Shown here: piece by piece, positions 3,006-18,442 of the stretch | Position numbering within the stretch: the stretch's first letter is position 1 | Layout: every line of letters starts with the position of its first letter | DNA from: a virus | Virus record (IMG/VR): IMGVR_UViG_3300037293_000017 | Coordinates: 1-24,678 of that record | Strand: one strand, 5' to 3' | DNA: 24,678 nt | Program-made: the position numbers and the translations under genes | Notes under the pieces: model-generated | Seen by the model: only the letters and a program-made list of their open reading frames with translations | Told to the model about the DNA's origin: nothing | Database searches by the model: none

Positions 3006-3549
3006 CGAGATACCATAATTTTATGCGTGGTGAGTCTTTTAAATAGAAACCGCCTACTATATTGCTGCTAATTACAGGATCGATATCGTAATTATTCGGC
3101 TGCGCTTGTTGATACTCTGGTATCTCATGCCCTTTATCTTCTAAATATCTTTCTAACCTGTCTATATAAACCTGCGCTTTTTCTCTTATGGCATTGGTGC
3201 GTCTGCTTATTATTGTGTCTTGCGTGTTTTGCGCGTCTGGCGGTGTTACGTCAAACACTCCATTATTATTTACCGACATACTAGCAAATAAAAGATATTC
3301 GGCAAACACGCTATTCCATAAAATAGGCTTGCAATAGTCAAACACTATTTTTCTGTAATGCCCTGTAAGGCTTTCTATGCCATCATCTGTTATATCTTGC
3401 AGTATCTTATCTATTAACGCAGTACCTAGCGTAGGCTCTAGTACAAAGACCTGCTGCTCTGGTATCATGTATGCGTATTTGTCGACGTCAACATTACCGC
3501 CCATTGGCGTGTTACGTGTTATTTCTATGGGTTGTATGATTAAAGCCAT
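2989..3549 (-). CDS. Head-tail connector-like protein
   Basis: The protein has 186 aa if started at the ATG at 3549, which overlaps the portal stop as TAATG. A 15-nt longer form would need a TTG start and is less likely. It is mostly helical, with an N-terminal segment (VDVDKYAYMIPEQQVFVLEP) and a middle typical of small adaptor proteins that sit under the portal in Bacteroidota phages (gp6/DUF6712-like). It is followed directly by a tail-tube-like paralogue. Position after portal and size support a connector role; no catalytic motif is visible. Confidence 0.65.
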   Translation of the reverse strand: MALIIQPIEITRNTPMGGNVDVDKYAYMIPEQQVFVLEPTLGTALIDKILQDITDDGIESLTGHYRKIVFDYCKPILWNSVFAEYLLFASMSVNNNGVFDVTPPDAQNTQDTIISRRTNAIREKAQVYIDRLERYLEDKGHEIPEYQQAQPNNYDIDPVISSNIVGGFYLKDSPRIKLWYLDGSDR

Positions 3550-5216
3550 TATCTTAGTTTCCAAAAGTTATTACTAGGACTTGCAATTTGTGCTACCTCT
3601 TTATCGTTTACTGGTAGTCTAAAATCTGCCCTATCGCTTGGGTCTAGTTCTAAGATTCTACGCCTTGCCTCGTTTACTGAAATGCGCTCATTGTTACGTC
3701 TTAAGTATATTTGACGCTGCCAGAAATGCTTGCAGTTAACGCCACCTTTGTATAAAAATATGTCATAAGTATTAGAACCGCCTTCACCCATTTTTTTTTG
3801 CACAATAGTTTTACTAGCCGCATCAATATCTTCTTTGCGATAAACTAATTTTGCACCCATAACGTCTCGGCAAAACTTACGTTCTGGAGCTGAATTACCT
3901 TTATACACATAACGCACTTTAAAAAGTCCGTTATCTTGCGATTTACTTGCGTTGTTAGGACTGTTATTTATCGGGCTTGCGAGGTTTATGTCTACGGGTA
4001 TGCCGCGGATAGCCTCTTCGCTTATAAGTTCCCACTCATCGCCCATTACCTCGCCTAGACCTATTAAAAACGCTGACCCGTCTGGCTCTTGCTCGCTTAG
4101 TGTAGTAGTTTCTACTGGCGCGTCCATCATTTCCTCTTGCTCCTCTTTTTTATTTAAGGCTTCAAAATACAAATCTAAATTTATACCTTGCTCTTGCAAA
4201 AATGGTGTGATGCTATCTATTATTAAGTCCTGCTCTGGATTAATGCGCATATCCATTGTCAAACTCAAAGCGGTTTGTAATTCTTCTGCGTTATTTCCTA
4301 GCCCGCTGTTATCTTTGATACCAAACAAAACAGGAGATACTACACCGTGAGCGCGCATTATTTTTTCCTCGCCTTGCTTGTTTACGCTTTCCCATTGCTT
4401 ATGCGAGTCGCTAACTTGCAAAGGCACTATTTCTACCGCAGCTTCTTTGCCGTCGTTAAATGATATGATAATCTTGCCAGCGTTTGTGCTGCCAGTCATT
4501 TGCATCTTTATACGTCTTTCAATCTCTTCGCGTTGCTCTTCGCTTGCTGGTACACCGTTGTTCATGTTTACAATGTAGCCGTAAGAAAATCCGTTTTTAA
4601 TGTGGTTTATATAATAGTTAGAGATTTCCTCCTCCATTTCTGCATACTGCAGACCGCTTTGATACTTTGGTAAAGAGTAATAAGACGCGCTGTCTTGCGC
4701 ATCGTTAATATATAAAATTTCAGTTTCTGAACCGTTTGTTGTTCCGTATTTAGGTATAAACTTAGGCTCATACTTCTTCACGTTTTTCCATTCTTCAGAA
4801 TACCAAAATCCATCTACTTCTCCGTCCTCGTTAACCTTGTTAAACGCTAATTTTGTAACGTCAATATACTTGGCTTGCTTTGTTCCGTTTTTGTTTGTAA
4901 TGATTTGAAACGCAGCGTTAAACTGCAAAGCATAATCTTTTATGACCTTGCGCATATCGCGCTTAGGTATAGCCGCTAACATCTTAGCATAATCCATAGG
5001 CTTGCGTGCTGCATCTCTAGCGTATAAACCACGCCCAAAATAAAGGTTTCTGTAACCGTTTATAATTGTGCTATTCGTTGGGCTTCCGATATACCTATCT
5101 TCTACGTACTGAAAATAAGAATTGTCTTTTCCGTTTAAAACCCAATCCTTACCCCTTACCTCTTCTATTTTAGGCTTTACGTAATTGTTTAACTGTATTA
5201 CTTTTATGTCGCTCAT
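3549..5216 (-). CDS. Portal protein with a C-terminal Cys/His-containing extension
   Basis: The protein has 555 aa from the ATG at 5216, which overlaps the preceding stop as ATGA. A frame reaching 5258 starts with TTG and is rejected. The first roughly 370 residues have portal features: an N-terminal clamp/wing region, the segment VVSPVLFGIKDNSGLGNNAE, and a following helix with an EEL motif, as in portals of Bacteroidota siphoviruses. After an acidic linker (about residues 370-430), a separate domain of about residues 433-506 carries FCRDVMG, YRKEDI and GGVNCKHFWQRQIY. This pattern resembles the C-terminal end of phage MuF/head-morphogenesis proteins. No separate MuF gene is seen nearby, so the portal may have absorbed part of that function. 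The portal assignment is firm; the extension's role is inferred. Confidence 0.85.
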   Translation of the reverse strand: MSDIKVIQLNNYVKPKIEEVRGKDWVLNGKDNSYFQYVEDRYIGSPTNSTIINGYRNLYFGRGLYARDAARKPMDYAKMLAAIPKRDMRKVIKDYALQFNAAFQIITNKNGTKQAKYIDVTKLAFNKVNEDGEVDGFWYSEEWKNVKKYEPKFIPKYGTTNGSETEILYINDAQDSASYYSLPKYQSGLQYAEMEEEISNYYINHIKNGFSYGYIVNMNNGVPASEEQREEIERRIKMQMTGSTNAGKIIISFNDGKEAAVEIVPLQVSDSHKQWESVNKQGEEKIMRAHGVVSPVLFGIKDNSGLGNNAEELQTALSLTMDMRINPEQDLIIDSITPFLQEQGINLDLYFEALNKKEEQEEMMDAPVETTTLSEQEPDGSAFLIGLGEVMGDEWELISEEAIRGIPVDINLASPINNSPNNASKSQDNGLFKVRYVYKGNSAPERKFCRDVMGAKLVYRKEDIDAASKTIVQKKMGEGGSNTYDIFLYKGGVNCKHFWQRQIYLRRNNERISVNEARRRILELDPSDRADFRLPVNDKEVAQIASPSNNFWKLR

Positions 5217-5518
5217 GCTCTTAGTGTGTAATTTTGTAAGTCGGTTTGATTTGTGCAATAGATTTCGCCTCTATAAACCACTTTTAAACCGTTATAAATA
5301 TCGATAGTTAAGTTGCTGCCCTCGCTTAATGTTATGCTGTCTGTCGGCATTGTAAATGACAAATAGCCTAGCACCTCAACGTTAGGCGCAAACGTTTCCG
5401 ACGTAAAAGTGTTACCGTTTGCCTTATCTTTTAGCGTATAAAACACTTCAGTAAGGTTAAAACTACGCGGTATAAATTTAAAGTTAAAATTTGCTAAGTC
5501 TTGGTTAACTATCTTCAT
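5213..5518 (-). CDS. Small beta-rich structural protein upstream of portal
   Basis: The protein has 101 aa and no recognised family. It has short alternating hydrophobic strands (VEVLGYLSFTMP, NLTIDIYNGLKVVYRGEIY), suggesting a small beta sandwich. It is the first gene after the late promoter-like element at 5523-5551, whose last base lies 4 nt before the ATG. Its stop overlaps the portal start as ATGA, so it is co-translated with portal. A virion or head-assembly accessory role fits the context. Confidence 0.7.
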   Translation of the reverse strand: MKIVNQDLANFNFKFIPRSFNLTEVFYTLKDKANGNTFTSETFAPNVEVLGYLSFTMPTDSITLSEGSNLTIDIYNGLKVVYRGEIYCTNQTDLQNYTLRA

Positions 5519-5522: not shown

Positions 5523-5551
5523 TTAAAACGATTAGTATGTGTATTTGTTTA
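5523..5551 (-). promoter_or_regulatory. Late promoter-like element A (portal/fibre unit)
   Basis: On the minus strand the site reads TAAACAAA, 11 nt, ATCGTTTTAA, then CTAC and the ATG at 5518. It is one of four matching copies, all before structural transcription units. It lies just downstream of the terminator at 5554-5587, as expected for a new transcription start. If TTTTAA is the -10 box, transcription would begin at or next to the ATG. Confidence 0.75.
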
Positions 5552-5553
5552 AT

Positions 5554-5587
5554 AAAAAAAGCCCCTAAAATTAATTAGAGGCTTTTT
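5554..5587. terminator. Intrinsic terminator, usable on both strands
   Basis: On the minus strand the hairpin is AAAAAGCCTCTAA, loop TTAATT, TTAGGGGCTTTTTTT, with one G-T wobble in the stem and T-runs on either strand. It follows the tail-tube-like gene (stop at 5606) and precedes late element A. It would end transcripts of the protease-capsid-tube unit, and would also stop any plus-strand transcript. Confidence 0.85.
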
Positions 5588-5605
5588 GCTTAAATATTTG
5601 TTTTA

Positions 5606-6145
5606 CTATGGGTTAATCGGTGTGCCGTCAACTAATGCTTCAAGTGCGGTTTTAGTTGCTGAATCTAAAAGCGGTGCGATTTTGTTTTCTTGTGCTGAAA
5701 ACGTTAAATTGTAACCGTTAAAATCTGCCTTTGCGCCACCTGTTCCGATAGTGCTACCTGTGGTTTCCATACCCTCGCTTATTCCTGCGACGTGGTAATT
5801 ATCGTTATTATCTCTAACGACTATTACAGGTCTACCAGCAACTATCTTATCCACTTGCGCGTGTGTTAAAACATCTTGCTTCTTTAATACTAAAGTAAGC
5901 GTTTGAGTGTTAACTCTTGTACCTGCCTCACGGCTTCCTATTAGACCTTGGTCAAAAGTATTGCCCTCTGCTAGTGCTTCAAACTTGTAAACCGTGGTTA
6001 ACTCTGCTGCAATAGCCGTAACTGCTCCGTCTAGTACTGTAAATGCTCCATCTGCCTCGACAAAATCTGCAAGGTACACCGCCCGAATACCTCCGAGCGT
6101 GTCCTTACATGGTTCTGTGCGTCCTTTTGTTACCAAACAGCTCAT
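5606..6145 (-). CDS. Major tail tube-like protein
   Basis: The protein has 179 aa. It follows the major capsid gene with a TAATG overlap and is followed by a strong terminator, a layout that fits an abundant virion protein. It opens with GRTEPCKDTLGGIRAVYL and contains ADFNGYNLTFSAQE near the C-terminus; both are shared with the protein at 2433-3005. Mixed beta content and length (160-200 aa) fit a tail tube subunit, but no signature motif proves it. A head-completion or decoration protein is the main alternative. Confidence 0.65.
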   Translation of the reverse strand: MSCLVTKGRTEPCKDTLGGIRAVYLADFVEADGAFTVLDGAVTAIAAELTTVYKFEALAEGNTFDQGLIGSREAGTRVNTQTLTLVLKKQDVLTHAQVDKIVAGRPVIVVRDNNDNYHVAGISEGMETTGSTIGTGGAKADFNGYNLTFSAQENKIAPLLDSATKTALEALVDGTPINP

Positions 6146-7053
6146 TATGCGCCTACGTAATAAACGATATCCTCTGAATTGTAGTAGTTTACACCACCGT
6201 TGTAAACCATTTTCATCCTAACTTGCCCGTCAAATAACACATCTTCCATGTCTTTAACTCTGATTTCGTTGTGATCTCCTAGCAAGCCAGTTGCAAAAGC
6301 AAGGTTCTTAACCTCATAAGCAACTATCGTGTTGTCAGCAAGTCCGTTAACTATCTCTAGTGTGTAACGACCGAATACTAATGAAGTATTTGCGTTTCCA
6401 CCTAGACCGTTTATCGCTCCAAAAGAGGTAAGCTTCTGCAAGTACTTAGTAGCCACGTCAGGAGATACAATAAATACAAGGCTCTTACGTAGCATTGCGG
6501 TAGGAATTGAGTTCTCTACCAACTCCAAAGCTTCTATAACGTTGTCCTTTGTTATTGCACCCGCTGGTGTAGGCTTAATTACTGCTGCATCGGCTCTAAA
6601 CAACTTTGTAAAGCCGTCCCACTCACCTACATTTGCAGAATCTCCGTTCCATATGAGGTCATCTGTACGTTGTGCTGTACTTGCTAAAACCTCGGCAAGT
6701 ATTGCGCTCTCGATGTCAGCAGCTAGAGTGTCGTTAAAGGCGCTTGCACCAAAACCGTCTTCGCTCCATGTTTGTCTAAAATCTTCCTTACATACTTCTA
6801 AGTTGTTCATCAACTTAACAGGAATTATCTGTCGCTCATTAAGAAGGATTGCACCCGATGGAGTGAATCCACAAGAATAAGCGACGGTACCGTCCGTGTA
6901 TCTAATACGTCTTAGACTGATTTTATCGTTTACGTTAAATAAAGGCGTAATTAAGCCCTTTGCTAGAGTGTCAGCTTCTCTGAATGCTGCACCGATTATT
7001 TCACCTGCGACCTTGCCCGCATAGTTACTTGATACTGTTGTAGTTGTTGCCAT
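6145..7053 (-). CDS. Major capsid protein, HK97-fold type
   Basis: The protein has 302 aa, the usual size for a processed or small HK97-like capsid subunit. The N-terminal region (MATTTTVSSNYAGKVAGEII) is followed by a long helix-rich segment. A long P-domain-like part includes ADIESAILAEVLASTAQRTD, and the C-terminal strands include GDHNEIRVKDMEDVLFDGQV and end NYYNSEDIVYYVGA. It lies 3 nt after the prohead protease/scaffold gene, the standard order for this pair. The next gene overlaps it by TAATG. The call rests on context plus this arrangement. Confidence 0.85.
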   Translation of the reverse strand: MATTTTVSSNYAGKVAGEIIGAAFREADTLAKGLITPLFNVNDKISLRRIRYTDGTVAYSCGFTPSGAILLNERQIIPVKLMNNLEVCKEDFRQTWSEDGFGASAFNDTLAADIESAILAEVLASTAQRTDDLIWNGDSANVGEWDGFTKLFRADAAVIKPTPAGAITKDNVIEALELVENSIPTAMLRKSLVFIVSPDVATKYLQKLTSFGAINGLGGNANTSLVFGRYTLEIVNGLADNTIVAYEVKNLAFATGLLGDHNEIRVKDMEDVLFDGQVRMKMVYNGGVNYYNSEDIVYYVGA

Positions 7054-7056
7054 TTT

Positions 7057-8151
7057 TTAGTTTCTATTTTTTTGAATTTGAGCAAGTATGCGCCCTTTGG
7101 CGGTTGCTGGTCTTTCGGTTAGTGTTACTTGTGATTTTGCTTGTATGCGTGTAGTTGCTGGCTGCTCGCCCATTTTAGAAAGTGCTAGTTTAAAGTCTGC
7201 GTTTTCTTGCTTAACCTCGGCTAGTTGCGTAGTCAAAGAATTTAAACCGAACCTTTTTTCTAACGCGTTAAAAAATTTATTCATTTCGTCGTCGGATAGT
7301 TCCGCTTCAACTTCTGGAGCGTCCTCTGCTGGTGCTGCTTCTGGTTGCATAATCTCTGCGATTATACCTTCCTCTGCGATAACCATCATAGTGCCATCCT
7401 CTAGGCTATACTCGCCTACTGGTAAAGGTACTTGCTCGCCCTCGTTCTCAATAAATACAACCGTACCTACCTCTAGTGCCTCGCCGTCATAAAAGACTTC
7501 TACACCGTCAGCGGTTATTACGCTGCCTGCTAGTTTAACGTCCGCTGGTTTTGATGCGTTAATTAGGGCTTCACCTAATCGCTGCAAAATCCCTTTGGAC
7601 TCATTTTGTTTATTCATAGTTACATTTTTAGTTATCTCTTTTAAGTTAAAAATTCCGTCAATACTAAAGCCTAATATCTTGCCGTCTTTGGCATCTTGCC
7701 ACACTTTGTCATCGTGTACCTTCATCATTACCGCCCATGAGCCTACGCGGTCAGTAAAGCCAAATTTTCGCGTCTTATCGTGTACGTCGTCTTCTATAAT
7801 CCACGATTCAACCACGCTCACCGCATCGCTTCCTAAATCAATCTCATGCTCTAGTGTGCTGTTGTTTACGTTGCCTTTTTTCACAAAATCGTGAGCGGCT
7901 TGTACTATTGTTTTGCTAGAAAAAACTAGGTTGTAGTCACCGCTCTCGTCGCTTCTAAAAATAGGCTTGTTTGGCACTAACGCTATACCCATAAGTATTC
8001 TGCGCTCCTCGTCTACCGTTGCAAGTTTTACCGTCTTTTTTTGCTCGGATAGTGTGATCCAGTTGCTCTGCATGGCTGGACTTTTAACCACCGACAAAGC
8101 GTAGACGCCCTCGTTTTCTTTTGGATTATACTCAACGTTGTAGATTCTCAT
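7057..8151 (-). CDS. Prohead protease (XkdF-like) fused to a scaffold-like C-terminus
   Basis: The protein has 364 aa. The first roughly 170 residues match the XkdF-type phage serine protease pattern: STLEHEI with His102, VESWIIED with Ser117, and KDGKILGFSIDGIF near 157-168. His102 and Ser117 are the likely catalytic pair. The remaining roughly 190 residues are Ala/Glu-rich and include a coiled-coil-like part (LTTQLAEVKQENADFKLALS), as expected of an internal scaffold that the protease later degrades. It directly precedes the capsid gene and is the first gene after late element B. Confidence 0.85.
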   Translation of the reverse strand: MRIYNVEYNPKENEGVYALSVVKSPAMQSNWITLSEQKKTVKLATVDEERRILMGIALVPNKPIFRSDESGDYNLVFSSKTIVQAAHDFVKKGNVNNSTLEHEIDLGSDAVSVVESWIIEDDVHDKTRKFGFTDRVGSWAVMMKVHDDKVWQDAKDGKILGFSIDGIFNLKEITKNVTMNKQNESKGILQRLGEALINASKPADVKLAGSVITADGVEVFYDGEALEVGTVVFIENEGEQVPLPVGEYSLEDGTMMVIAEEGIIAEIMQPEAAPAEDAPEVEAELSDDEMNKFFNALEKRFGLNSLTTQLAEVKQENADFKLALSKMGEQPATTRIQAKSQVTLTERPATAKGRILAQIQKNRN

Positions 8152-8155
8152 ATAG

Positions 8156-8184
8156 TTATAACGATAGCCTAAACCTTTTGTTTA
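8156..8184 (-). promoter_or_regulatory. Late promoter-like element B (protease/capsid unit)
   Basis: On the minus strand this reads TAAACAAA, 11 nt, ATCGTTATAA, then CTAT and the ATG at 8151. Spacing to the start codon is identical to copy A. It drives, by position, the protease, capsid and tail-tube-like genes and sits in the 51-bp gap after the tape measure gene. Confidence 0.75.
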
Positions 8185-8202
8185 ACTCAAAATAAAAATA
8201 AA

Positions 8203-10062
8203 TTATCCAAAAGCAGCCTGCGACCTTGTACTGCGGTCTGCGGCTTGCTGGCTTGTAACATCTTGACCTACTACAAAGGCTCTAACAGGCGGTGTATCTT
8301 GCTGGTCCAAACCTGTTCGTAATTGGTTTACATTTGACCTACCTACTAGATTAAACGCTGGCTGCTGCGTTGCTGTTGCCGTCGCTGTGTTACCACCAGA
8401 GCCGCCTCCTTGACCAGCTACCTTTACGGATAGTATTTGCTTAACGTTTGCCAGTCCAGCCGCTACCGCTGCCGCTGCTGCTATTGCTCCACGTATAGGC
8501 GCGTCAGGTGTTGCTAGTGTTTGCTGTGCTTTAAAAGCAGCCGTAGCACTTTGGTAGGTGTCTACTAAAGTAGTGGCAACCGCTAACGCTTTACTCGCAA
8601 CCGTTCTTTTTCCCGCTAACGCTTCTAAACCTTGCGCAACTGTGCTTAAATTGGTGAGAGATTGAATCCTAGAATTAGTTATGGCATCCTCTAAATCTTT
8701 TTTATCTTTTTCAACTTTTTCGTCTGCTGCCTCTTTTTTTTCTGCTGCCTCTTTTACTCTTAATGCTTCCGCTTCGTCAATCTCTTTTATCTTGTTGTCA
8801 AAATCTTGCTTTGCTGCAATAATCAATCTATCGCGTTCTAGTATGTCCTCGACCTGCAAAGCAATTTGCGCAAGCCTATCATCTCTAAGCTGTGCGGCTT
8901 CGTCTTTTGCGAGTTCTATTTCAGTTCTGCCTATCTTACCTAATTCGCCTAGGATGTCCTTACGTTCGAGCAAAAGGCTGTTTAAGTTAGCTTCCTGCTC
9001 TGACCTAAATCCACCGACTTGTGCCTCTATTGCTATAAGTTCGTTTTGCGCTTCGATTAGTTCGCGTTGTGCTTCTATGTTTCCGTTGGTTCGTTTTACC
9101 TCATCTGCTGCGGCTGCAACCCGAAAACCTGCCTGTGCCTTTTGCGCTTTCTCTTGCTCGTCAAGTACTTTGCCTAACTCCTCATTAGCTGCTATCCTTT
9201 CCTCAATAGATAGCCTATCATCATCTCTTATGCGTCTTTGTGTTTCTGCTAAAACGTCGAACTTTTCTATCAACCCTTGTAACCTTGCAGCGGATAGTAT
9301 AGCGTTATTTTGCAAATCCTTACTTGTTTTCGCTTGTTGAAATGCTGCCTCTAAACTTACCTTGCCTATGTTAGTACTTACGGCATTAGCCAAAGAGCCT
9401 ACTTCACTAATAGCCCCTACAAAATTATCCTTAATTTTAAAACCTGCCGCGACTGCCTCCGTAGTTGCTTTTAATATTTCGGCTTGCGTTTGTTTTATAG
9501 ATGCGTTTAAGGTTTTTATTGTTTCCTGGTCTTTATCACCGAAAAATGATTTCTCCCACGCAAGTTGCGCCTCTTGCAATGCTAATTTTATACCCGAAAA
9601 AGCAAGTTTAAAAGGTGTTAGGGTTAAGGTTAAAATACCGCTTAAAACTTTGCCTAATTTATCAAACCCTCCTGTTGCTTGGCTTACTGATTTAAAGGCA
9701 TTAAAGACCGCCGTAGCAACTTCTCTAAAAACGTTGCTTATAGTTCCTATTGCAACCGAAAAGAAATCTGCAACCTTTTGATTTTCGCTTAGTACTTTAG
9801 CAAATAAAGCAAACAACCCTAAGACTATTCCTAAGCCTAGACCCTTTATCGCTGTGCCTATTGCGCTTATTCCCTTGCTGGCTAGTTTGCCCGCTGTGCC
9901 TGCACTCTTTGCGCTCTTGCCTACTTTGTCTATGCTTTTGGTCGCTTCCTTACCGCCTTTCTCTGCGGTGTCTGCTACGCCTTTAATCGACTCGTCTAAG
10001 TCTTTGACGTTCTTTGCTGCGCCTGATTTGTCTATTACTAATTTTATAACTTTCTCAATCAT
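8203..10062 (-). CDS. Tape measure protein
   Basis: The protein has 619 aa. It has the typical tape measure make-up: a Lys/Ala/Gly-rich N-terminus (KSIDKVGKSAKSAGTAGKLA), hydrophobic segments near 70-95 (GLGLGIVLGLFALFAKVLS), and a long Glu/Ala/Lys-rich helical middle (about 270-450). A hydrophobic Ala-rich stretch follows near 530-550, then a flexible Gln/Thr-rich C-terminus. At about 0.15 nm per residue this predicts a tail of roughly 90 nm, hence a siphovirus. No lysozyme or peptidase domain is visible. Its ATG overlaps the end of the 51-aa gene upstream. Confidence 0.9.
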   Translation of the reverse strand: MIEKVIKLVIDKSGAAKNVKDLDESIKGVADTAEKGGKEATKSIDKVGKSAKSAGTAGKLASKGISAIGTAIKGLGLGIVLGLFALFAKVLSENQKVADFFSVAIGTISNVFREVATAVFNAFKSVSQATGGFDKLGKVLSGILTLTLTPFKLAFSGIKLALQEAQLAWEKSFFGDKDQETIKTLNASIKQTQAEILKATTEAVAAGFKIKDNFVGAISEVGSLANAVSTNIGKVSLEAAFQQAKTSKDLQNNAILSAARLQGLIEKFDVLAETQRRIRDDDRLSIEERIAANEELGKVLDEQEKAQKAQAGFRVAAAADEVKRTNGNIEAQRELIEAQNELIAIEAQVGGFRSEQEANLNSLLLERKDILGELGKIGRTEIELAKDEAAQLRDDRLAQIALQVEDILERDRLIIAAKQDFDNKIKEIDEAEALRVKEAAEKKEAADEKVEKDKKDLEDAITNSRIQSLTNLSTVAQGLEALAGKRTVASKALAVATTLVDTYQSATAAFKAQQTLATPDAPIRGAIAAAAAVAAGLANVKQILSVKVAGQGGGSGGNTATATATQQPAFNLVGRSNVNQLRTGLDQQDTPPVRAFVVGQDVTSQQAADRSTRSQAAFG

Positions 10063-10210
10063 TTTGTAACATTTTAATTGTTCTTATAACCTTGCGTTTT
10101 GCCCCTTTTAAAGTAGAAACTAGTTCATACTTTCCCTTTGCAATTTCTATTGTTTCGGTTTCACCGTAGTACTCAAATGCTTGCAGCGCATCTATTATTT
10201 TGCCTATCAT
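10055..10210 (-). CDS. 51-aa protein between tail protein and tape measure
   Basis: The protein begins MIGKIIDALQAFEYYGETET and ends TIKMLQND. It starts in an ATGA overlap with the stop of the 748-aa tail protein and ends 8 nt inside the tape measure gene. A frame stitched at both ends into its neighbours is very likely real, even though it is short. It is predicted to be an alpha/beta protein with a basic C-terminus (GAKRKVIRTIK). The family is unknown; a tail assembly role is inferred from position only. Confidence 0.75.
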   Translation of the reverse strand: MIGKIIDALQAFEYYGETETIEIAKGKYELVSTLKGAKRKVIRTIKMLQND

Positions 10211-12453
10211 GTTGCTAATTGTAAAACTGTTATAGTCGGGTTACTTACTCCGTCCGTTATATTTATAGTGCCTACTCTGTCCTCTGTAAAAACATCGGCT
10301 TTAAATGTAAATACAATGTTTTCGCCTGATGTAACTACTGGCGTTTGTAAAATTATAAACTGACTTTGCGTCGTTACAAATGCTTGCTCTGCACCTGTGT
10401 AGTAAATAGATCCACCGTCGGCAAATTGCCCAGTAGATTGTGAAACCTTGCTTATGTCGCCCGCGCTTAGGCTGGTAAAAATATCATTTATTAAAACCAA
10501 TTTTGAAACGCCTGTGATTAAGTTGGAATCCACGGTATCTATAATGTACCTATCGCCTTTTATTATTAGTCTGTCGTTTAGTTTTAACTCACTTGCAAGT
10601 GTTATGGGTAGGTTGGCATTTAGCGTGAACTGTCTTCGGTTTTCACTAAACAAATCATTTAGGTAATCGCTATAAAATCGTGAATACCAGTTGTCTAAAA
10701 GAGTAGCACCGTTGTACTCGCTAAACTCCGCGTTAAATTGTGCCGCAAAACCACCTGTTAACTGCAAAGAATGACTAGGTAAGCGCGCTTTTATTACTTC
10801 TTGGTAGGTATCACCACTGAATCCTATGCGGTTATCGGAAGTTAACTCTAGTAATGGTGCGTAAAACAGGAACGGTGCGTTGTTATAGGCGTTTAAATCC
10901 TTATCGACTATCAATCCATACTGCACGGTTGAGCCTGTGAAGCGTTCAAACTGTGGATTTTCAAATGGTAGTTCTATTTTTAACTCGTCCTCTGCTGAAA
11001 TATTCTCTAGGCTATCCTCAAAACCTCCAAATTGTTGCGAAAAAATACCCTCGTATTGTTCTGCAAGTATGCTTTGTTGCTCTTTATAACCAAAATTAAT
11101 CTCGTTGTATAGCTTACCGCGTGTCACGTCTAGCGTTTCTATATCTACATACTGCGATATGTCAGTAATTGCTCCGCTATCGTACCAGCTTGCTAGGTCA
11201 TTTATATAAAGGTCGCCATTATTTTGTGGTACGATTACTAAATTAAACGCCTTTACGATTGCGGCTATAAAATCAACTACTTTTATATCGGGCAAAATGT
11301 TTTTAATCTCTACTTGTGGCGCAAGGCTAGTAAAACTGCTGGTATTTGTGCTTTGATCAGTTACAAAAATATTACTAGAGTTGTTTACAAAGTTTAACGT
11401 TTGGTATGTTATGTCTACCGTCGCTGTTATTATGCCTTTTATTTCTAATTTATAGTTAAATAGATACGGTGCTGAAGTAAACGGAAACAAGTCACCTCTA
11501 TAAGTTATCCGATTATTACCTGTTAAATAATCGCTTTTGAAAACTTGCTCACCATTTATAAAAAATAACAAACGGTATTCAGAATCTCCCGCGCTTACAT
11601 TTACTTGCGCGCTTATTTCTGGTCTAAATCTCGGCTGGTACATTTCCCTTTGATAAGGTGTAATAGTAAAAGTATGCAGGTCTAGTATTCGACTAGGAAT
11701 AGCATCATCTTTGCCATTGCCTAAACTCATAAATAGATTGTCGAACTCTTGGCGCGCAAAAAAATCATTTGTAAAAAACAAGCCGTACTGCCTGCTTATT
11801 GCTTCCATTATTTCTTTTACTTTTATTGCTGGTTTTAATTCTCGCCAGCTTAACCCGCTAGTAAATGAAGCGTCATACTTTATATTTATATTATCTTCGT
11901 TGTCTAGTTGTGAGCCTTGAAACAAGTATCTTCTGTCATAAGATAAAAGAGGATATACTATGCTGCCGTAGCCGATACCAAACAGGCCGGTAAATCCCCT
12001 TAAAACCGTTTGCGGGCTATATGCATGGTCAAACTCTACAAGTTCGTCTAAATCCCGAAGTTTGTCCTCGCCTATCAAGTCCTTTATTTTAACCGTATCA
12101 CCAAAAAACTCTATCGTATAATTTACTGGTACATTTGATTGCAGAGATGCACCGTTAAGTTGAACCTTGCCTATTTTGTAAGTTACACCACCTAAAAGTA
12201 ATAACGCGCTTTGTTTTTTTCTTGCGTCAAAACCGTTTATTATTTGCGCGTCGTAGTAGTGCTTAAAAATAGCATTGTTTAGGTCGTCAGCAGGTACTCT
12301 GAATTGTTGCGTGAAGTCTGTAAATATTTTGGTTAAATCCTGAATAGATTGCACCGACTGGTTAAGCCTTATCGTTTCATCTGGGAATAAAGTAACGCGC
12401 TCAAATGGCGAGTCCTCGTTACGCTTTACGTAAAGTGCTAAATCGCTATACAT
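10207..12453 (-). CDS. Large tail protein (distal tail/tail-tip type)
   Basis: The protein has 748 aa from the ATG at 12453, which overlaps the previous stop by 8 nt. The frame extends to a TTG at 12468, judged less likely. The N-terminus (MYSDLALYVKRNEDSPFERV) contains the pattern around FTDFTQQFRVPADDLNNAIF seen in Bacteroidota phage tail proteins. The rest is beta-rich, with a central part (IKNILPDIKVVDFIAAIVKA) resembling gp27/hub-like folds in tail-tip proteins. It lies between the 473-aa tail protein and the tape measure gene. Tail hub or distal tail protein is the best guess. Confidence 0.7.
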   Translation of the reverse strand: MYSDLALYVKRNEDSPFERVTLFPDETIRLNQSVQSIQDLTKIFTDFTQQFRVPADDLNNAIFKHYYDAQIINGFDARKKQSALLLLGGVTYKIGKVQLNGASLQSNVPVNYTIEFFGDTVKIKDLIGEDKLRDLDELVEFDHAYSPQTVLRGFTGLFGIGYGSIVYPLLSYDRRYLFQGSQLDNEDNINIKYDASFTSGLSWRELKPAIKVKEIMEAISRQYGLFFTNDFFARQEFDNLFMSLGNGKDDAIPSRILDLHTFTITPYQREMYQPRFRPEISAQVNVSAGDSEYRLLFFINGEQVFKSDYLTGNNRITYRGDLFPFTSAPYLFNYKLEIKGIITATVDITYQTLNFVNNSSNIFVTDQSTNTSSFTSLAPQVEIKNILPDIKVVDFIAAIVKAFNLVIVPQNNGDLYINDLASWYDSGAITDISQYVDIETLDVTRGKLYNEINFGYKEQQSILAEQYEGIFSQQFGGFEDSLENISAEDELKIELPFENPQFERFTGSTVQYGLIVDKDLNAYNNAPFLFYAPLLELTSDNRIGFSGDTYQEVIKARLPSHSLQLTGGFAAQFNAEFSEYNGATLLDNWYSRFYSDYLNDLFSENRRQFTLNANLPITLASELKLNDRLIIKGDRYIIDTVDSNLITGVSKLVLINDIFTSLSAGDISKVSQSTGQFADGGSIYYTGAEQAFVTTQSQFIILQTPVVTSGENIVFTFKADVFTEDRVGTINITDGVSNPTITVLQLAT

Positions 12454-13867
12454 TTTGCACCGCGTCAAATGATTGTAAAAAGTCGATAGCGTAATTTATT
12501 AATTTATCGTTAAGCCCTGTTAAAACTCTTAGCGATTTGCTGTCTACGTTTACAGGTGTGAAAGTTCCTGCATCATTAAAATAAACATACTCGCTATTTA
12601 GCAAGTCTTTAAGTACTTCATTCTGTTGTTCGTTTAGATAGCCGCTGTTGAGGCTTACGGTAGTTCGTGCGTTCTTGTTCCCGCTTCTATATAAGTGTCG
12701 TGAGGTGTCGTATAAACCACCTAGAACAAAATTATTTTTATACTCGCCCTCTTGCGTAAATGTTACGCTTTCGTTTTTCGCCTTAAAAAAAGTTAGTTGC
12801 TCAAATACTCCGAGCCTATTTAAAAACATCACGTTAACAGGTGTAAACTTGCACTCTTTTACTATCTCAAAAATATACTCTGTATTTAATACTATATAAG
12901 GCGTGGTTAATGCCGTAGTATCTACAAATAAATACTGAACTCTGTTTTCAACTATCTGACTATTTACTATCGTATTACCATAAATAATATTTTGGTCTTT
13001 ATCTTCAAAAAAATAACTGGATCCGTCTGCTAATACAGGCACTACGATTGTATCCCCTTGCTGAACTTGGTTAAACTTAGAGGTTAGTAAGACGTTGCTG
13101 GTCGTGTCTAGGTAATTGGCTCCGTCAGCATAAGACGAATATCCGCGCGTAGTAATTAAGTCCACAATACGCGACTGTGGCGAGGTCTGTACGTTGTTTT
13201 GCGTTCGTATTGTAGTTGCTACTAACGAACCTACAGCGCTCGGTAAGATACCAGTAGATGCACGCCATACTGGTCTAGGATTTAGGAAGTCTAAAGCAAA
13301 TCTAGAGATTAAAACGTCAAAATATTCCCAGTTTAAACTAGGCGTAAACACTTTTTTCTCATAGTTAGGTGATGCAAGGCTTGCGCTCGTGTCGCCTGTC
13401 CTAAAAAACATCTGCACATTCTGGAATAGTTCCGTACTTATTACTAAAGATAGGTAATAGTTTGAACGCGCAAGCATTAAACCGTCGATTGCTGGCACGC
13501 TGCTAGGTGTGTTCGTTATTAACGCGCTTACTCTTACGTCGTTAGGCGCGAAAGTAAACAACTGATTTATAAATATATCGGGGTTTGTACTTTTAACCGT
13601 TACAACGTTGACTAAAATAGTACATTCCCATTGCCCACTAGCCACAAAATCCAAATCGATAGCGTCTTTGTATAGCTGTGCTTGCGTGTTTGAGTCCGTT
13701 CCTGCTGAAAATTCAAAGGCTTGCGACCTTGTTTGTACGATAGTTTCTAAAACTACCCCGCTAGACTGCGTAAATTGATTTGTAAAGCCTATCGATAGAC
13801 CGTTATTTTGTACGTTAAAATCAAATTCCTGATCGAACGTTATTTCTATCTCTGCGAATGTTGCCAT
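12446..13867 (-). CDS. Beta-rich tail structural protein
   Basis: The protein has 473 aa and is the first gene after late element C. Almost all predicted secondary structure is beta: short alternating strands separated by Asn/Thr/Ser loops. There is no signal peptide, catalytic motif or repeat. The C-terminal part (NSGYLNEQQNEVLKDLLNSE) resembles the end of tail proteins paired with the downstream 748-aa type in flavobacterial phages. The two genes overlap by 8 nt and are probably made together. Precise function is unknown. Confidence 0.65.
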   Translation of the reverse strand: MATFAEIEITFDQEFDFNVQNNGLSIGFTNQFTQSSGVVLETIVQTRSQAFEFSAGTDSNTQAQLYKDAIDLDFVASGQWECTILVNVVTVKSTNPDIFINQLFTFAPNDVRVSALITNTPSSVPAIDGLMLARSNYYLSLVISTELFQNVQMFFRTGDTSASLASPNYEKKVFTPSLNWEYFDVLISRFALDFLNPRPVWRASTGILPSAVGSLVATTIRTQNNVQTSPQSRIVDLITTRGYSSYADGANYLDTTSNVLLTSKFNQVQQGDTIVVPVLADGSSYFFEDKDQNIIYGNTIVNSQIVENRVQYLFVDTTALTTPYIVLNTEYIFEIVKECKFTPVNVMFLNRLGVFEQLTFFKAKNESVTFTQEGEYKNNFVLGGLYDTSRHLYRSGNKNARTTVSLNSGYLNEQQNEVLKDLLNSEYVYFNDAGTFTPVNVDSKSLRVLTGLNDKLINYAIDFLQSFDAVQNV

Positions 13868-13872
13868 AGAAT

Positions 13873-13902
13873 TTATAACGATAAAATGGGTATCTTTGTT
13901 TA
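13873..13902 (-). promoter_or_regulatory. Late promoter-like element C (tail unit)
   Basis: On the minus strand: TAAACAAA, 12 nt, ATCGTTATAA, then 5 nt and the ATG at 13867. It lies in a 133-bp gap before the two large tail genes, the 51-aa gene and tape measure. It is the third of four matching copies. Confidence 0.75.
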
Positions 13903-13917
13903 AATCAAAACAGCATC

Positions 13918-13992
13918 ATGAAATATACATTTGTAATAACACAAGAAAAAAAGAATGATTATACATTTGAGCAACCTGTCGATAGTATTTAG
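13918..13992 (+). CDS. Doubtful 24-codon frame on the plus strand
   Basis: The frame reads MKYTFVITQEKKNDYTFEQP then VDSI and a stop. It is the only candidate frame against the general gene direction and fills most of the gap between two minus-strand genes. A TATCTTTG at 13891-13898 fits the Bacteroidota -7 box, but no -33 box lies at the right distance, and the same bases belong to late element C. It could be a chance ORF or the remnant of a gene start. Confidence 0.2.
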   Translation: MKYTFVITQEKKNDYTFEQPVDSI

Positions 13993-14000
13993 GTATGACC

Positions 14001-14492
14001 TTACGACGTAGTAAATGTTAACAGGTCGTCAAGTTCTAATGCAAACGCTTCTACGACTTCCTCTGGCAGTTTCTTAAATTCGTTTTCGAATGGCTTAGTA
14101 AAAAACTTAGTAGGCTTTATGCCGCGTTTAAAAATAGCCGTAGCAACAGCAAACCCAAAGGATTTATAAGTAGTGAATTTGCCTTGTTTATTCCTGGGCT
14201 TTATGCCTTTAAGTTTAGCCCACTTCTCAAATATTTGTGCTGGTGGTTTCTTTGTCTTGTAACTAAAAGGCGTATTAAATTTGCGTTCCGTACCGCTTAC
14301 ACCGCTATCTTGAAACTGCCAGTAATTCTTTAAATCAAAACTTAAAATAAAAGAGTTCGGGCTTACGGTTAAATCGTACTTTGTAGATTCATACAAGCCC
14401 TTACTTGCGTTCATTTTATTACGCGTTAAGTTTGCACGCGCTTGCTGCTTTACGCGCTTACTAAACGTGTCTAAGGCTTTCTTTACGGACAT
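14001..14492 (-). CDS. Neck/tail completion protein, HK97 gp10-like
   Basis: The protein has 163 aa and is strongly basic. It begins with a helical Lys-rich stretch, then the segment NYWQFQDSGVSGTERKFNTP and the following KKPPAQIFEKWAKLKGI. That pattern (aromatic-Q-DSG-V-G, then PP-x5-W) is typical of small head-tail joining or tail completion proteins in Bacteroidota phages. It overlaps the 149-aa gene by 10 nt. Assembly at the head-tail joint is inferred from family resemblance. Confidence 0.65.
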   Translation of the reverse strand: MSVKKALDTFSKRVKQQARANLTRNKMNASKGLYESTKYDLTVSPNSFILSFDLKNYWQFQDSGVSGTERKFNTPFSYKTKKPPAQIFEKWAKLKGIKPRNKQGKFTTYKSFGFAVATAIFKRGIKPTKFFTKPFENEFKKLPEEVVEAFALELDDLLTFTTS

Positions 14493-14932
14493 ATAGACAT
14501 AACATCGTTAGGCACTTCAACTAACAAACTTAGTTCCCAGCCATAGATACCATTTTTAACTGAATCTACCTTTGTAAATCCGCTATCGGTTGATACGCTT
14601 ATAATCTCATTTCTTACTAACTCATTGTACATACGTCTTAGCGATTGTAAAGAGGTGTTATAAACGTCTTGGCGGTTGTCGTTTGTTGTAAACTTGTCGG
14701 TGTTTATCTCTTTACGTGTCTGCACCATGTCAAGTATTTGAACCGTAACGTTAAACTGAAAATTGTTTGCCGTAAAGTTTCCGTCTGCTGCTTCTATGTG
14801 CGCAAGCGGGTAAAGGTTCTTTTTTTGTATATCGATCTGGTCTATTTGGCTTCCCTCGGTAACCGTGTTAATGTCGGTATCTGCGCTTAAAATAGACAGT
14901 AGGTAGTTAAGTAGTTGTGTATATGCGTTCAT
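14483..14932 (-). CDS. Tail terminator-like protein
   Basis: The protein has 149 aa with an alpha/beta layout: an N-terminal helix (MNAYTQLLNYLLSILSADTD), a central strand pair (LYPLAHIEAADGNFTANNFQ) and a C-terminal strand before the stop. Length, order next to the gp10-like protein and fold pattern suit a tail terminator or tail completion protein, which caps the tail tube before joining to the head. No motif proves this. It is the first gene after late element D. Confidence 0.55.
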   Translation of the reverse strand: MNAYTQLLNYLLSILSADTDINTVTEGSQIDQIDIQKKNLYPLAHIEAADGNFTANNFQFNVTVQILDMVQTRKEINTDKFTTNDNRQDVYNTSLQSLRRMYNELVRNEIISVSTDSGFTKVDSVKNGIYGWELSLLVEVPNDVMSICP

Positions 14933-14936
14933 AATG

Positions 14937-14966
14937 TTAAAACGATTTGACTAGGCTTTTTGTTTA
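14937..14966 (-). promoter_or_regulatory. Late promoter-like element D, embedded in the end of the chaperone frame
   Basis: On the minus strand: TAAACAAA, 12 nt, ATCGTTTTAA, then 4 nt and the ATG at 14932. The TAAACAAA part lies inside the last codons (MAKQKA-stop) of the frameshifted chaperone product, so the box is conserved even within coding DNA. Confidence 0.75.
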
Positions 14967-15700: not shown

Positions 15701-16888
15701 TTACCTAACGTAATAAACTCCTTTAGGCTTACCAAAGAGTTCCATTATCGCATAACGAACTCCGTCGATAGCGTGGTTGTTTATGTCAATAGGCTTGTTT
15801 AGTCTCTCGCCTGTCTTATCTGTCGCCCATGTGTAAGATTGAAACTCCTTAATTACGTTCTTAGACCGCGATGTAATAATTATATCCTGCTCTTGCATTA
15901 ACTGTATACCAAAATTTATACTGTCGTTGCCCTTTTTGGCTGGTAGTATGCGTATGCCCGCTCGCTTAATTTCTGCTATGCTCTTTGGCTCTGCGCTGTC
16001 TGCGTATATGTATAGACTAGTTCCGATAGATTGTTGCTTACATAGGCTTACAATGTCGCTGTTGAGCAAACCAGTCTTATATACTTCCTCATCTAATATT
16101 ATGCTATCGTTATACTTGTAGATACTTGTTATGGCGGTAGGGTCATTTGTATAACCAAAATCTAAGCCATGACCTAGTAGCCTTGCATCTTGTGGCACGC
16201 TGTCTATTTGTTTAAACGATTCAAATATAACGCCTTCAATGCCGCCTGTGTTGCCTAATCCGTAGACCTGCCATTTGTTAGCCCAGTACTCGCTTTTTAT
16301 TGTGCCGTCGTCATTGTAGCCCTTACTCTTATACCGCAGTATCTCGTTGCGTTCTTGCTCGCTTAGATACTCGTTGTCTAAAAATGTGAGTTGTAGGAAG
16401 TCGCAGTCGTCGCGCGGGATTACTTCCTTATGCGCCCAAAATTCTACGTTCGGATTATAATCAATTATTATGCGTTTAGCGCGTGAGGTTAATTCTCGGT
16501 ATGATTCAAAGTTAATTTTGTTTGCTTCGTTAATATACACTAGGTCGGAGCGTAAACCTTTACCCACATCGTCTTTATCTAAGCCTATAAAGCGAATGAA
16601 CGAACCAGTAGGAAGCGTTATTTTAGGCTGTCCGAAATCTATACCAGTCATTTTACAAGTAATGCCTAGTTTATCTATTATGTTAATGCAGTCTTTTAAG
16701 ACCGTATCCCGCATCTTAGATAGTTCAGACGAAACAATATAGCACTCTTTACCGTTATGCTGTGCTAAGTGGTTTATAATGATTATACACGCGCTGTAAG
16801 TCTTTGCCGCACCTTGCGAACCTTGCAAACACCATATCTTTTTTTTTAATCCTGCTATCTTACGTAGCGCGGTTGTTTGCTTAATCAC
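15701..16888 (-). CDS. terL: Terminase large subunit
   Basis: The protein has 395 aa and is the packaging motor and nuclease. ATPase: Walker A GSQGAAKT (23-30), Walker B DLVYINEAN (115-123) with the catalytic Glu, and a coupling segment IIDYNPN. Nuclease: acidic residues in GLDFGYTNDPTA (Asp243), YADSAEP (Asp297) and NNHAIDGVRYA (Asp375), the RNase H-like metal site. The overall pattern is the PBSX/Terminase_3 group. The start is a GTG at 16888, overlapping the small-terminase stop; no in-frame ATG lies before the Walker A motif. It acts at the portal during head filling. Confidence 0.95.
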   Translation of the reverse strand: MIKQTTALRKIAGLKKKIWCLQGSQGAAKTYSACIIIINHLAQHNGKECYIVSSELSKMRDTVLKDCINIIDKLGITCKMTGIDFGQPKITLPTGSFIRFIGLDKDDVGKGLRSDLVYINEANKINFESYRELTSRAKRIIIDYNPNVEFWAHKEVIPRDDCDFLQLTFLDNEYLSEQERNEILRYKSKGYNDDGTIKSEYWANKWQVYGLGNTGGIEGVIFESFKQIDSVPQDARLLGHGLDFGYTNDPTAITSIYKYNDSIILDEEVYKTGLLNSDIVSLCKQQSIGTSLYIYADSAEPKSIAEIKRAGIRILPAKKGNDSINFGIQLMQEQDIIITSRSKNVIKEFQSYTWATDKTGERLNKPIDINNHAIDGVRYAIMELFGKPKGVYYVR

Positions 16889-17144
16889 TTAAAGGGTCTA
16901 TATTTATAATTTGCTGTTTAATGCTTTCGCCATTCGTGGTGACGTCGACTGACTGTCTAGGCTTGCCATATAAGTACTCAAAGAATAATTTAACCGCCCA
17001 CGATTGATCGTCTTGTAAACCTGTTTCTAATGCCTTATAAGCCTTGTCTATTAAAGGCGTAAGTTTCTCCACTAGCTTTTGCTCCTCCGCTTTAGGCTTT
17101 CGCCCTCCGTTGCTGTGCCCTCCGTTGTTTTTTCTTTTATCCAT
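16881..17144 (-). CDS. Small terminase-like protein
   Basis: The protein has 87 aa. A basic, Gly-rich N-terminus (MDKRKNNGGHSNGGRKPKAE) precedes two helices (LIDKAYKALETGLQDDQSWA, then the segment with LFFEYLYGKPRQS). This YGKPRQ ending is common in short proteins encoded just before terL in Bacteroidota phages. It overlaps terL by 8 nt. It would recognise the packaging site in the DNA. It is shorter than usual small terminases (120-180 aa), so the call rests mainly on position. Confidence 0.65.
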   Translation of the reverse strand: MDKRKNNGGHSNGGRKPKAEEQKLVEKLTPLIDKAYKALETGLQDDQSWAVKLFFEYLYGKPRQSVDVTTNGESIKQQIINIDPLSD

Positions 17145-17145
17145 A

Positions 17146-17167
17146 ATTGAAATTTATTGAGTTCAAT
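17146..17167. repeat. Short inverted repeat before the small terminase start
   Basis: ATTGAA and TTCAAT (plus strand) are separated by 10 bp, and an inner ATTGA-GT-TCAAT shares the right arm. It lies immediately upstream of the ATG at 17144, where it could form a small operator or an mRNA hairpin. The arms are short and AT-rich, so chance cannot be excluded. Confidence 0.3.
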
Positions 17168-17184
17168 ATTTTGATAATGTTTAT

Positions 17185-17388
17185 CTATAACTTTAAACCT
17201 GTATAAGGATTTGTATTTGTAAAAACAATAACGTCACTCGGTGCTAATTCTGTATAAAGCACCTTGTATCCCTTGTGTTTTGTCACGTTGCTAAAATGAA
17301 CCATCGAGCAAACAAAGAAATACTTTTCCGTGTTTAAAGTCTTTGGAACTTTGGCAAGCATCTTGTTTAATATCTTTCTTAGTTTCAT
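17185..17388 (-). CDS. Hypothetical small basic protein
   Basis: The protein has 67 aa with a basic N-terminal helix (MKLRKILNKMLAKVPKTLNT) followed by a beta-rich half (KVLYTELAPSDVIVFTNTNP). It starts 2 nt after the stop of the zinc-binding-like gene and precedes the small terminase by 40 nt. No family recognised; function unknown. Confidence 0.55.
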   Translation of the reverse strand: MKLRKILNKMLAKVPKTLNTEKYFFVCSMVHFSNVTKHKGYKVLYTELAPSDVIVFTNTNPYTGLKL

Positions 17389-17390
17389 AT

Positions 17391-17956: not shown

Positions 17957-18442
17957 TTATTGCTTTTGTGCTAGGTATGAGTCTCTTAACTCCTTATCAA
18001 ATTTTAAACTGTCTTTAATTTTGACCACGTTGTATGAGATTGTTGAGTAGTGTACTTGATAACGCTTGCCGAGTTCACGAAATGTTTTACCGTCTACCTC
18101 CATGAGTGCTAAATCCGCATAGTATGGGTCATGCTGTTTTAACTTTTCCGTAAGCATTAACTCCGCTGCTGTGGCTTCGTTATCTTCGTTCTCTTGCGTT
18201 AAGTAGTTACTAACATCTTCTATATCTATATCGTGCTTGTCTGTTCTTAGAACGTCCCTAAACAAGTTTAAGATACACCAGTAGACATATGAACTATTTG
18301 TTTTGGTATAACCGTTTCGGTCAAACTTAATATACATCTCCTGCACTAACTCATCGCCTAGTTGCGTGTTGTTAGTTATAGAGTAAGCGTAAGCCCGCCA
18401 TCTGTTGTCATGCTCGGCTAGTTTGTCTAAGGTTGTTTGCAT
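17957..18442 (-). CDS. Phage-encoded sigma-70-like factor
   Basis: The protein has 161 aa. Residues of about 10-70 fit a sigma region 2 (AYSITNNTQLGDELVQEMYI, then YVYWCILNLFRDVLRTDKHD), including the aromatic/basic helix that contacts the -10 DNA. An acidic linker follows, then a region-4-like helix-turn-helix at about 119-143 (KTFRELGKRYQVHYSTISYN). Size and layout match ECF-type sigma factors, which direct host RNA polymerase to special promoters. It lies upstream of the terminase and structural genes. It is a natural candidate to read the four late elements; that link is inferred. Confidence 0.8.
   Translation of the reverse strand: MQTTLDKLAEHDNRWRAYAYSITNNTQLGDELVQEMYIKFDRNGYTKTNSSYVYWCILNLFRDVLRTDKHDIDIEDVSNYLTQENEDNEATAAELMLTEKLKQHDPYYADLALMEVDGKTFRELGKRYQVHYSTISYNVVKIKDSLKFDKELRDSYLAQKQ

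What the first reader, a model, noticed from the sequence alone, without database searches (positions are those of the whole stretch)
5523..14966. Four near-identical two-part elements mark starts of structural operons: a candidate phage-specific late promoter
Seen directly: on the minus strand TAAACAAA, 11 or 12 nt, ATCGTTWTAA occurs at 5523-5551, 8156-8184, 13873-13902 and 14937-14966. Across the 18 defined positions only one varies (T/A). I found no fifth copy by reading. Each is 4-5 nt before the ATG of the first gene of a structural unit. The sequence does not match the Bacteroidota housekeeping promoter (TTG/TAnnTTTG). Inference: AAACAA as -35 and TTWTAA as -10 are separated by 16-17 nt, so this is a promoter class of its own.
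Basis: partly seen in the sequence, partly recalled or inferred. Interest (0 to 1): 0.82.

Follow-up and report, generated by a model that had tools for sequence, protein, structure and literature searches.

The report
Phage sigma's late promoters, likely leaderless
The four repeated DNA elements are very probably the late-gene promoters of a virus of flavobacteria-like bacteria, read by the virus's own sigma factor and placed so exactly that each late message should begin at the A of its start codon, without the usual untranslated leader.

Summary
In detail: four exact copies on the minus strand, none expected by chance, each 4-5 nt before the ATG of the first gene of a structural block. The interpretation (a phage-specific late promoter) is well supported and can be sharpened. 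The same architecture, AAC-N16..18-GTTWWH-N5-ATG, precedes orthologous late genes in relatives sharing only 26-60% protein identity, including the complete cultured Nonlabens phage P12024S. There, all six core matches in the genome lie 4-5 nt before a late-gene ATG. The window and nearly all long relatives encode a small sigma2+sigma4 protein of ECF type (window 17957-18442). In the published geometry of the ECF factor SigH (-10 = G-11 T-10 T-9; PMC6411747) position +1 falls on the A of the ATG. Among 63 non-redundant sites the base before the ATG is a pyrimidine in 61, against 596 of 1425 background ORFs (p = 3e-20): the initiator signature of transcription starting at the AUG. Late mRNAs are therefore probably leaderless, unusual for Bacteroidota. 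Nearest known system: phage 7-11 gp47 (GTAAtg-16-aCTA). New variant of a known kind. No RNA data exist; the sigma-promoter link is inferred.

The parts
5523..5551 (-). Late promoter 1: TAAACAAA-N11-ATCGTTTTAA, before the 101-aa gene that opens the portal operon; predicted +1 at 5518 (A of ATG)
   Evidence: conserved in L011, L015, L018, L035, L041, L048 and others at the same position; position matches P12024S gp05
8156..8184 (-). Late promoter 2: TAAACAAA-N11-ATCGTTATAA, before the prohead-protease-like gene (PF14550); predicted +1 at 8151
   Evidence: kept in relatives with 44-59% protease identity
13873..13902 (-). Late promoter 3: TAAACAAA-N12-ATCGTTATAA, before the 473-aa gene; predicted +1 at 13867 or 13868
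   Evidence: ortholog P12024S gp44 (41% identity) has a site
14937..14966 (-). Late promoter 4: TAAACAAA-N12-ATCGTTTTAA, before the 149-aa gene; predicted +1 at 14932
   Evidence: ortholog P12024S gp41 (41% identity) has a site
5556..5587 (-). Intrinsic terminator hairpin with U-tract directly upstream of promoter 1
   Evidence: -16.2 kcal/mol, z -4.6; a strong hairpin and T-tract at the same place in 8 of 9 relatives inspected
17957..18442 (-). Phage-encoded ECF-like sigma factor (161 aa, sigma2 + sigma4), the inferred reader of the promoters
   Evidence: TIGR02937 1.3e-9, PHROG 1740 8.8e-8, PF04542 8e-5, fold match to ECF sigma factors; ortholog P12024S gp33
5213..5518 (-). 101-aa first gene of the portal operon, driven by promoter 1
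7057..8151 (-). Prohead-protease-like protein (PF14550, XkdF-type), driven by promoter 2
12446..13867 (-). 473-aa structural-block gene, driven by promoter 3; ortholog of gp44
14483..14932 (-). 149-aa structural-block gene, driven by promoter 4; ortholog of gp41

Best explanation
The four elements are the late promoters of a tailed phage of Bacteroidota related to Nonlabens phage P12024S. Proposed mechanism: early in infection the host sigma factor transcribes the early block, which includes the phage sigma gene at 17957-18442. The phage sigma (a two-domain ECF-type protein) joins the host RNA polymerase core. Its sigma4 domain reads TAAACA at about -34 to -29 and its sigma2 domain reads (C)GTT at -11 to -9. 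It starts transcription at the A of the ATG, so packaging and virion operons are made as leaderless mRNAs. At the portal operon a terminator directly upstream ends the previous transcript before the new one starts. SHOWN by sequence: the elements, their conservation at orthologous late genes, the fixed spacing, the fixed distance to ATG, the T(-1)/A(+1) signature and the presence of the sigma gene. INFERRED: that this sigma reads these elements, that the start site is the A of AUG, that host sigma drives the early block, and the late timing.
For: (1) Exact motif x4 against 0 expected. (2) Conserved at the protease gene in relatives of 44-59% identity, with diverged spacers. (3) The P12024S orthologs gp41, gp44, gp01 and the gene opening the portal operon (gp05) carry sites (gp01 in a degenerate form), plus gp08, gp35 and gp45, all in the packaging/virion blocks; 6 of 6 genome-wide core matches sit before an ATG. 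(4) In 32 records, spacing 16-18 gives 53 sites, against 9, 9, 9 and 13 for the other spacings tested and 25 for 10-12; gap 5 gives 34 sites, and gap 6 the next most at 11. In the wider set 59 of 78 non-redundant ATG sites have gap 5. (5) -1 pyrimidine in 61/63 sites against 596/1425, p = 3e-20. (6) ECF sigma: 39 of 45 aligned homologs match TIGR02937; sigma2 fits SigG1 at 2.3 A over 75 aa and sigma4 fits the SigC -35 domain at 2.8 A over 60 aa. It is found in 20 of 23 relative records of at least 23 kb. (7) Mtb SigH: -35 GGAAYA at -34..-29, -10 G-11T-10T-9, best spacer 17 bp (PMC6411747); the same coordinates put +1 on the A of ATG. (8) Relaxed sites occur in 19/23 sigma-bearing genomes and 1/5 without sigma.
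Against: No transcript data exist. The sigma falls just below the curated cut-offs of TIGR02937 (37.9 against 42.9 bits) and PF04542 (22.8 against 24). The AlphaFold model is only moderate (pLDDT 69, pTM 0.41), and the relative placement of its two domains is not reliable. The sigma-promoter link rests on co-occurrence and on analogy of the motif, not on a test. The AAC part is not perfect in all groups (GCAAAAT in L125/L128/L131, TAAACACT in L048), and 4 sigma-bearing records have no recognisable site. The window's terminase block (15701-17750) has no site, although P12024S has one before gp35.
Confidence: 0.82

Rival explanations
1. Same promoters, but the transcript starts further upstream or downstream, so the mRNAs have a short leader.
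For: Start sites of phage sigma promoters vary by a few nt (6-9 bp beyond the element in phiEco32 and 7-11; PMC8948821). A at -3 is as common at these sites (0.64) as at other genes (0.67), as a Kozak-like context would ask.
Against: Gap 5 dominates (59 of 78 ATG sites). The -1 base is a pyrimidine in 61/63 and almost never A, whereas other genes have A there in about half the cases; an initiator, not a leader, explains that. The SigH register gives +1 at the A.
Confidence: 0.12
2. The element is a translation-initiation (Kozak-like) signal of Bacteroidota rather than a promoter.
For: It sits directly before ATGs, and Bacteroidota lack Shine-Dalgarno sites and use bases close to the AUG (PMC6847099).
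Against: It occurs at only 4 of about 35 window genes and 7 of 59 P12024S genes, all at starts of late blocks. It reaches 35 nt upstream with a two-box spacing of 16-18. The reported Bacteroidota signal is A at -3, not this. It is missing in two Bacteroidota phages without the sigma (strict motif 0 in Fpv5 and phi46:1).
Confidence: 0.03
3. The element is an operator (AAC...GTT dyad) for a repressor or activator, and the real promoter is elsewhere.
For: AAC-N16..18-GTT is an inverted repeat of three bases.
Against: Symmetry stops at three bases; inner and outer flanks differ (AACAAA against ATCGTT, WWH after GTT). Spacing varies by 1-2 nt while the right box keeps a fixed distance to ATG, as a -10 does. 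There is no room for another promoter between element and ATG.
Confidence: 0.05
4. A host ECF sigma, not the phage protein, reads the promoters.
For: Bacteroidota carry many ECF sigma factors (own knowledge), and the motif is ECF-like.
Against: The phages carry their own ECF-like sigma as a near-universal gene (20 of 23 long records), and relaxed sites go with it (19/23 against 1/5).
Confidence: 0.08

Closest known systems
Salmonella phage 7-11 sigma gp47 and its late promoters (GTAAtg-16-aCTA), PMC8948821
   Same: Phage-encoded sigma factor, bipartite promoter with a 16 bp spacer, few copies, all before late genes, host sigma for early genes; start 6-9 bp beyond the element
   Different: Unrelated phage and host phylum; other box sequences; the word leaderless does not occur in that paper; sequence homology of the two sigmas not tested here
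phiEco32 sigma gp36 and its promoters (tAATGTAtA)
   Same: Phage sigma that drives middle and late transcription
   Different: Single-element promoter; its sigma lacks region 4 homology (PMC8948821), whereas the window protein has a predicted sigma4
ECF sigma factors of the SigH/SigR kind (GGAAYA-17-GTT), PMC6411747
   Same: Two-domain sigma2/sigma4; the three-base -10 GTT is identical; AACA shared in the -35; 15-17 bp spacers (SigH best at 17)
   Different: Encoded by a phage; no anti-sigma was looked for; TAAACA in place of GGAACA; low sequence identity (about 13-20%)
Bacteroidota housekeeping promoter TTTG / TANNTTTG (PMC6847099)
   Same: A box of this type stands before early genes of the window (TATATTTG at 23124-23131)
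   Different: Different boxes; its mRNAs mostly carry leaders (87% over 10 nt in F. johnsoniae)
T4 late promoter / gp55 (PMC2988020)
   Same: Small divergent sigma family protein dedicated to late genes
   Different: T4 splits sigma2- and sigma4-like functions into gp55 and gp33 and uses the sliding clamp; here one protein has both domains

Membership tests
ECF (group 4) sigma factor | Sigma2 and sigma4 domains with no sigma1.1 or sigma3 | tested here: met
   161 aa; AlphaFold model aligns residues 1-75 to sigma2 (2.3 A) and 89-148 to the SigC -35 domain (2.8 A); the domain arrangement itself has low confidence
ECF (group 4) sigma factor | Match to the curated superfamily model TIGR02937 | tested here: inconclusive
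   E 1.3e-9 over residues 9-147 but 37.9 bits against the cut-off of 42.9; 39 of 45 homologs match at E <= 0.01; two relatives pass the cut-off
ECF (group 4) sigma factor | Directs RNA polymerase to ECF-type promoters | not testable with these tools
   needs in vitro transcription; motif register agrees with SigH
Phage late promoter read by a phage sigma (7-11 type) | Conserved bipartite element before late genes only, few copies per genome | tested here: met
Phage late promoter read by a phage sigma (7-11 type) | RNA 5' ends a few nt beyond the element, appearing late and dependent on the phage sigma | not testable with these tools
   no transcript data
Bacteroidota housekeeping promoter | TAnnTTTG -7 element at a leader's distance before the gene | tested here: not met
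   the strict matches on the minus strand do not lie between any of the four elements and its ATG
Leaderless gene (TA-led type of PMC3160421) | -10 box about 10-12 bp before the start codon so that +1 is the start codon | tested here: inconclusive
   GTT ends 9 nt before the A at three sites, 10 at one; gap 5 dominant and T at -1 in relatives: position met, but the box is GTT, not TANNNT, and the actual 5' end is not tested

The most novel reading that the evidence does not exclude
A large group of Bacteroidota phages uses its own ECF-type sigma to rewrite late gene expression as leaderless mRNAs: promoter and start codon are fused into one roughly 36-nt cassette, so that late translation starts by a route different from that of the host's leadered, Shine-Dalgarno-free mRNAs and may favour phage proteins.
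Probability: 0.65. Interest if true: 0.75.

Novelty: new variant of a known kind. Interest (0 to 1): 0.62.

Why it matters
Transcription programmes of Bacteroidota phages are little known; literature searches here found no described late promoter for them. This gives a concrete promoter code (TAAACA-16/17-GTT with +1 at the AUG), a named sigma gene and a cultured phage (P12024S) in which to test it. If the late mRNAs are leaderless, it makes directly testable how Bacteroidota ribosomes start without a leader, and whether phages exploit that. The code also lets late operons be called from sequence in many uncultured phages, and offers an orthogonal sigma/promoter pair for a phylum with few genetic tools.

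Tried and rejected
A fifth copy at 10647-10675 (+) was considered and set aside: inside a conserved gene, no ATG behind it, found only in close relatives. Non-relatives among the 58 exact matches in viral contigs: roughly 20 loci with single matches and no window homologs look like chance hits in a very large collection and were not used. Sigma-70 consensus promoters: no excess over shuffles (51 found, 53.9 expected). Kozak-like A(-3) as a discriminator between leadered and leaderless: uninformative, 0.64 against 0.67. Controls that shift the -35 (CAA, ACA for AAC) gave 42 and 44 sites: they overlap the real AACAA box and are not independent, so the spacing and gap controls were used instead. 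Megablast of the window against named phages found nothing; only protein search found P12024S/L. The genome paper of P12024S could not be read.
Full report
CHECK OF THE OBSERVATION. The pattern TAAACAAA-N11/12-ATCGTTWTAA occurs exactly four times in the window, all on the minus strand at the stated coordinates; dinucleotide shuffles give none. The elements end 4 or 5 nt before ATGs at 5518, 8151, 13867 and 14932. A one-mismatch copy at 10647-10675 lies on the plus strand inside a conserved gene, without an ATG behind it. The window is a virus record of 24,678 bases, probably a fragment (the complete relative P12024S has 35.7 kb), so further sites may lie outside it.

GENES AROUND THEM. PHROG and Pfam place terminase at 15701-16888, portal at 3549-5258, a prohead-protease-like protein (PF14550) at 7057-8151, and a tape-measure-like protein at 8203-10062. 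An Erf annealing protein at 20906-21427 and a NinG/Rap nuclease at 23157-23762 lie in the other block. The gene at 17957-18442 is a sigma factor: PHROG 1740 'RNA polymerase sigma factor' 8.8e-8, TIGR02937 1.3e-9 over residues 9-147, PF04542 8e-5. The TIGR02937 and PF04542 scores lie just under the curated cut-offs.

CONSERVATION IN RELATIVES. A scan of viral contigs with the exact pattern gave 58 loci, about 35 of which are relatives by tblastn. Some share only 30-50% protein identity (L050, L054, L061). Protease and terminase alignments then brought in 160 more loci. Upstream of the protease gene the two boxes persist while spacer and flanks change: TAAACACT...ATCGTTATAACTATATG in L048 (59% identity), TAAACAAA...ATCGTTATAATAGTATG in L061 (47%), ATAACAAA...AGTTATAGTAATATG in L068 (45%) and others. 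GTTATA followed by ATG at a gap of exactly 5 is frequent (74, against 21 at gap 6 and 1-9 at the other gaps tested), and AAC peaks 16-18 nt before it.

A COMPLETE CULTURED RELATIVE. Protein search found Nonlabens (Persicivirga) phage P12024S, 35.7 kb. Its gp33 is annotated as containing sigma-70 region 2 and is the ortholog of the window sigma (26% identity). Sites of the form AAAACAA-N-CGTTAAT-N4/5-ATG stand before gp05, gp08, gp35, gp41, gp44 and gp45, with a more degenerate one before gp01. gp41, gp44 and gp01 are orthologs of the genes behind window sites 4, 3 and 2 (41%, 41%, 49%), and gp05 has the position of the gene behind site 1, just before the portal gene. All six strict core matches in its genome, both strands, stand 4-5 nt before a late ATG. 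Two Bacteroidota phages without the sigma (Fpv5, phi46:1) have no strict site.

STATISTICS OF THE ARCHITECTURE. In 32 records the pattern AAC-N-GTTWWH followed by ATG gives 53 sites at spacing 16-18, against 9, 9, 9 and 13 at the other spacings tested and 25 at 10-12 (the latter probably raised by A-rich spacers). By gap, 34 are at 5, 11 at 6, and 6 or fewer at each other gap. In the wider non-redundant set, 59 of 78 ATG sites have gap 5. The base before the ATG is T in 57 and C in 4 of 63 non-redundant gap-5 sites; in 1425 other ORFs it is a pyrimidine in 596 (p = 3e-20). Pyrimidine at -1 and purine at +1 is the usual initiator of bacterial RNA polymerase (own knowledge).

THE SIGMA FACTOR. 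An iterated profile search found 79 homologous ORFs in the fetched loci, some of them duplicates of one gene. Long records nearly all have one: 19 of 23 of at least 23 kb by TIGR02937, and 20 with the iterated profile. Of 45 aligned homologs, 39 match TIGR02937. The AlphaFold model (pLDDT 69) has a confident sigma2 (2.3 A over 75 residues to SigG1, 1.9 A over 65 to SigR) and a sigma4 that fits the SigC '-35 element' domain (2.8 A over 60); the best Foldseek matches are ECF sigma factors. Relaxed sites occur in 19 of 23 sigma-bearing genomes and in 1 of 5 without it.

WHY THE REGISTER MATTERS. In the SigH open complex the -35 element GGAAYA spans -34 to -29 and the -10 element is G-11 T-10 T-9, with a 17 bp spacer best (PMC6411747). 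Laying TAAACA on GGAACA and GTT on GTT, the window spacers are 16, 16, 17 and 17 bp. Counting 8 nt from the last T puts +1 on the A of the ATG at three of the four sites, and one nt before it at the site at 13873. Phage 7-11 promoters start 6-9 bp beyond their element (PMC8948821), which agrees. Leaderless transcripts would be unusual in this phylum: in F. johnsoniae 87% of predicted transcripts have leaders over 10 nt (PMC6847099), and leaderless genes were detected in 1 of 37 Bacteroidetes/Chlorobi genomes (PMC3160421).

TERMINATOR-PROMOTER JUNCTION. Directly upstream of site 1 is a strong intrinsic terminator (5556-5587, -16.2 kcal/mol, z -4.6). A hairpin with a T-tract stands before the corresponding promoter in 8 of 9 relatives inspected (not P12024S). 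The portal operon thus appears insulated from the operon before it.

COMPARISON WITH KNOWN SYSTEMS. In function this resembles phage 7-11 (sigma gp47, GTAAtg-16-aCTA) and, more loosely, phiEco32 gp36 (PMC8948821, PMC4331800). In promoter sequence it resembles SigH/SigR-type ECF factors. It differs from all of these in host phylum, sequence and the fusion of promoter to start codon. The searches made here found no description of it in Bacteroidota phages; the P12024S genome paper itself was not available. Verdict: a real promoter class, a new variant of a known kind; the leaderless prediction is the most interesting part and is untested.

Noticed in passing
L281 (P12024S) 2750-3031, 5123-5412, 23811-23961, 24839-25201: Four late promoters of P12024S stand divergent to small minus-strand ORFs (gp04, gp07, gp40, gp43); those of gp04, gp07 and gp40 have host-type TAnnTTTG boxes that overlap the late -35 region on the other strand. 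This could couple early and late transcription or silence the late promoters early.
   Followed up: partly
window 2433-3005 and 5606-6145: Two genes on either side of the portal gene belong to the same family (PHROG 19091; P12024S gp03, gp09 and weakly gp05 likewise), a duplicated small virion-block gene.
   Followed up: no
window 10647-10675 (+): One-mismatch copy of the promoter, antisense inside the 753-aa gene, conserved only in close relatives; probably a coding coincidence.
   Followed up: yes
window 23791-24603: Phosphoadenosine phosphosulfate reductase-like protein (PHROG 424) in the early block.
   Followed up: no
window 23124-23131 (-): Housekeeping-type -7 box TATATTTG about 30 nt before the gene 22796-23092, consistent with host sigma transcribing the early block with a leader.
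   Followed up: partly
L125, L128, L131: A subgroup keeps CGTTATA-N5-ATG but has GCAAAAT-like sequence in place of TAAACA as the upstream box at several sites, a natural variant for testing sigma4 specificity.
   Followed up: no
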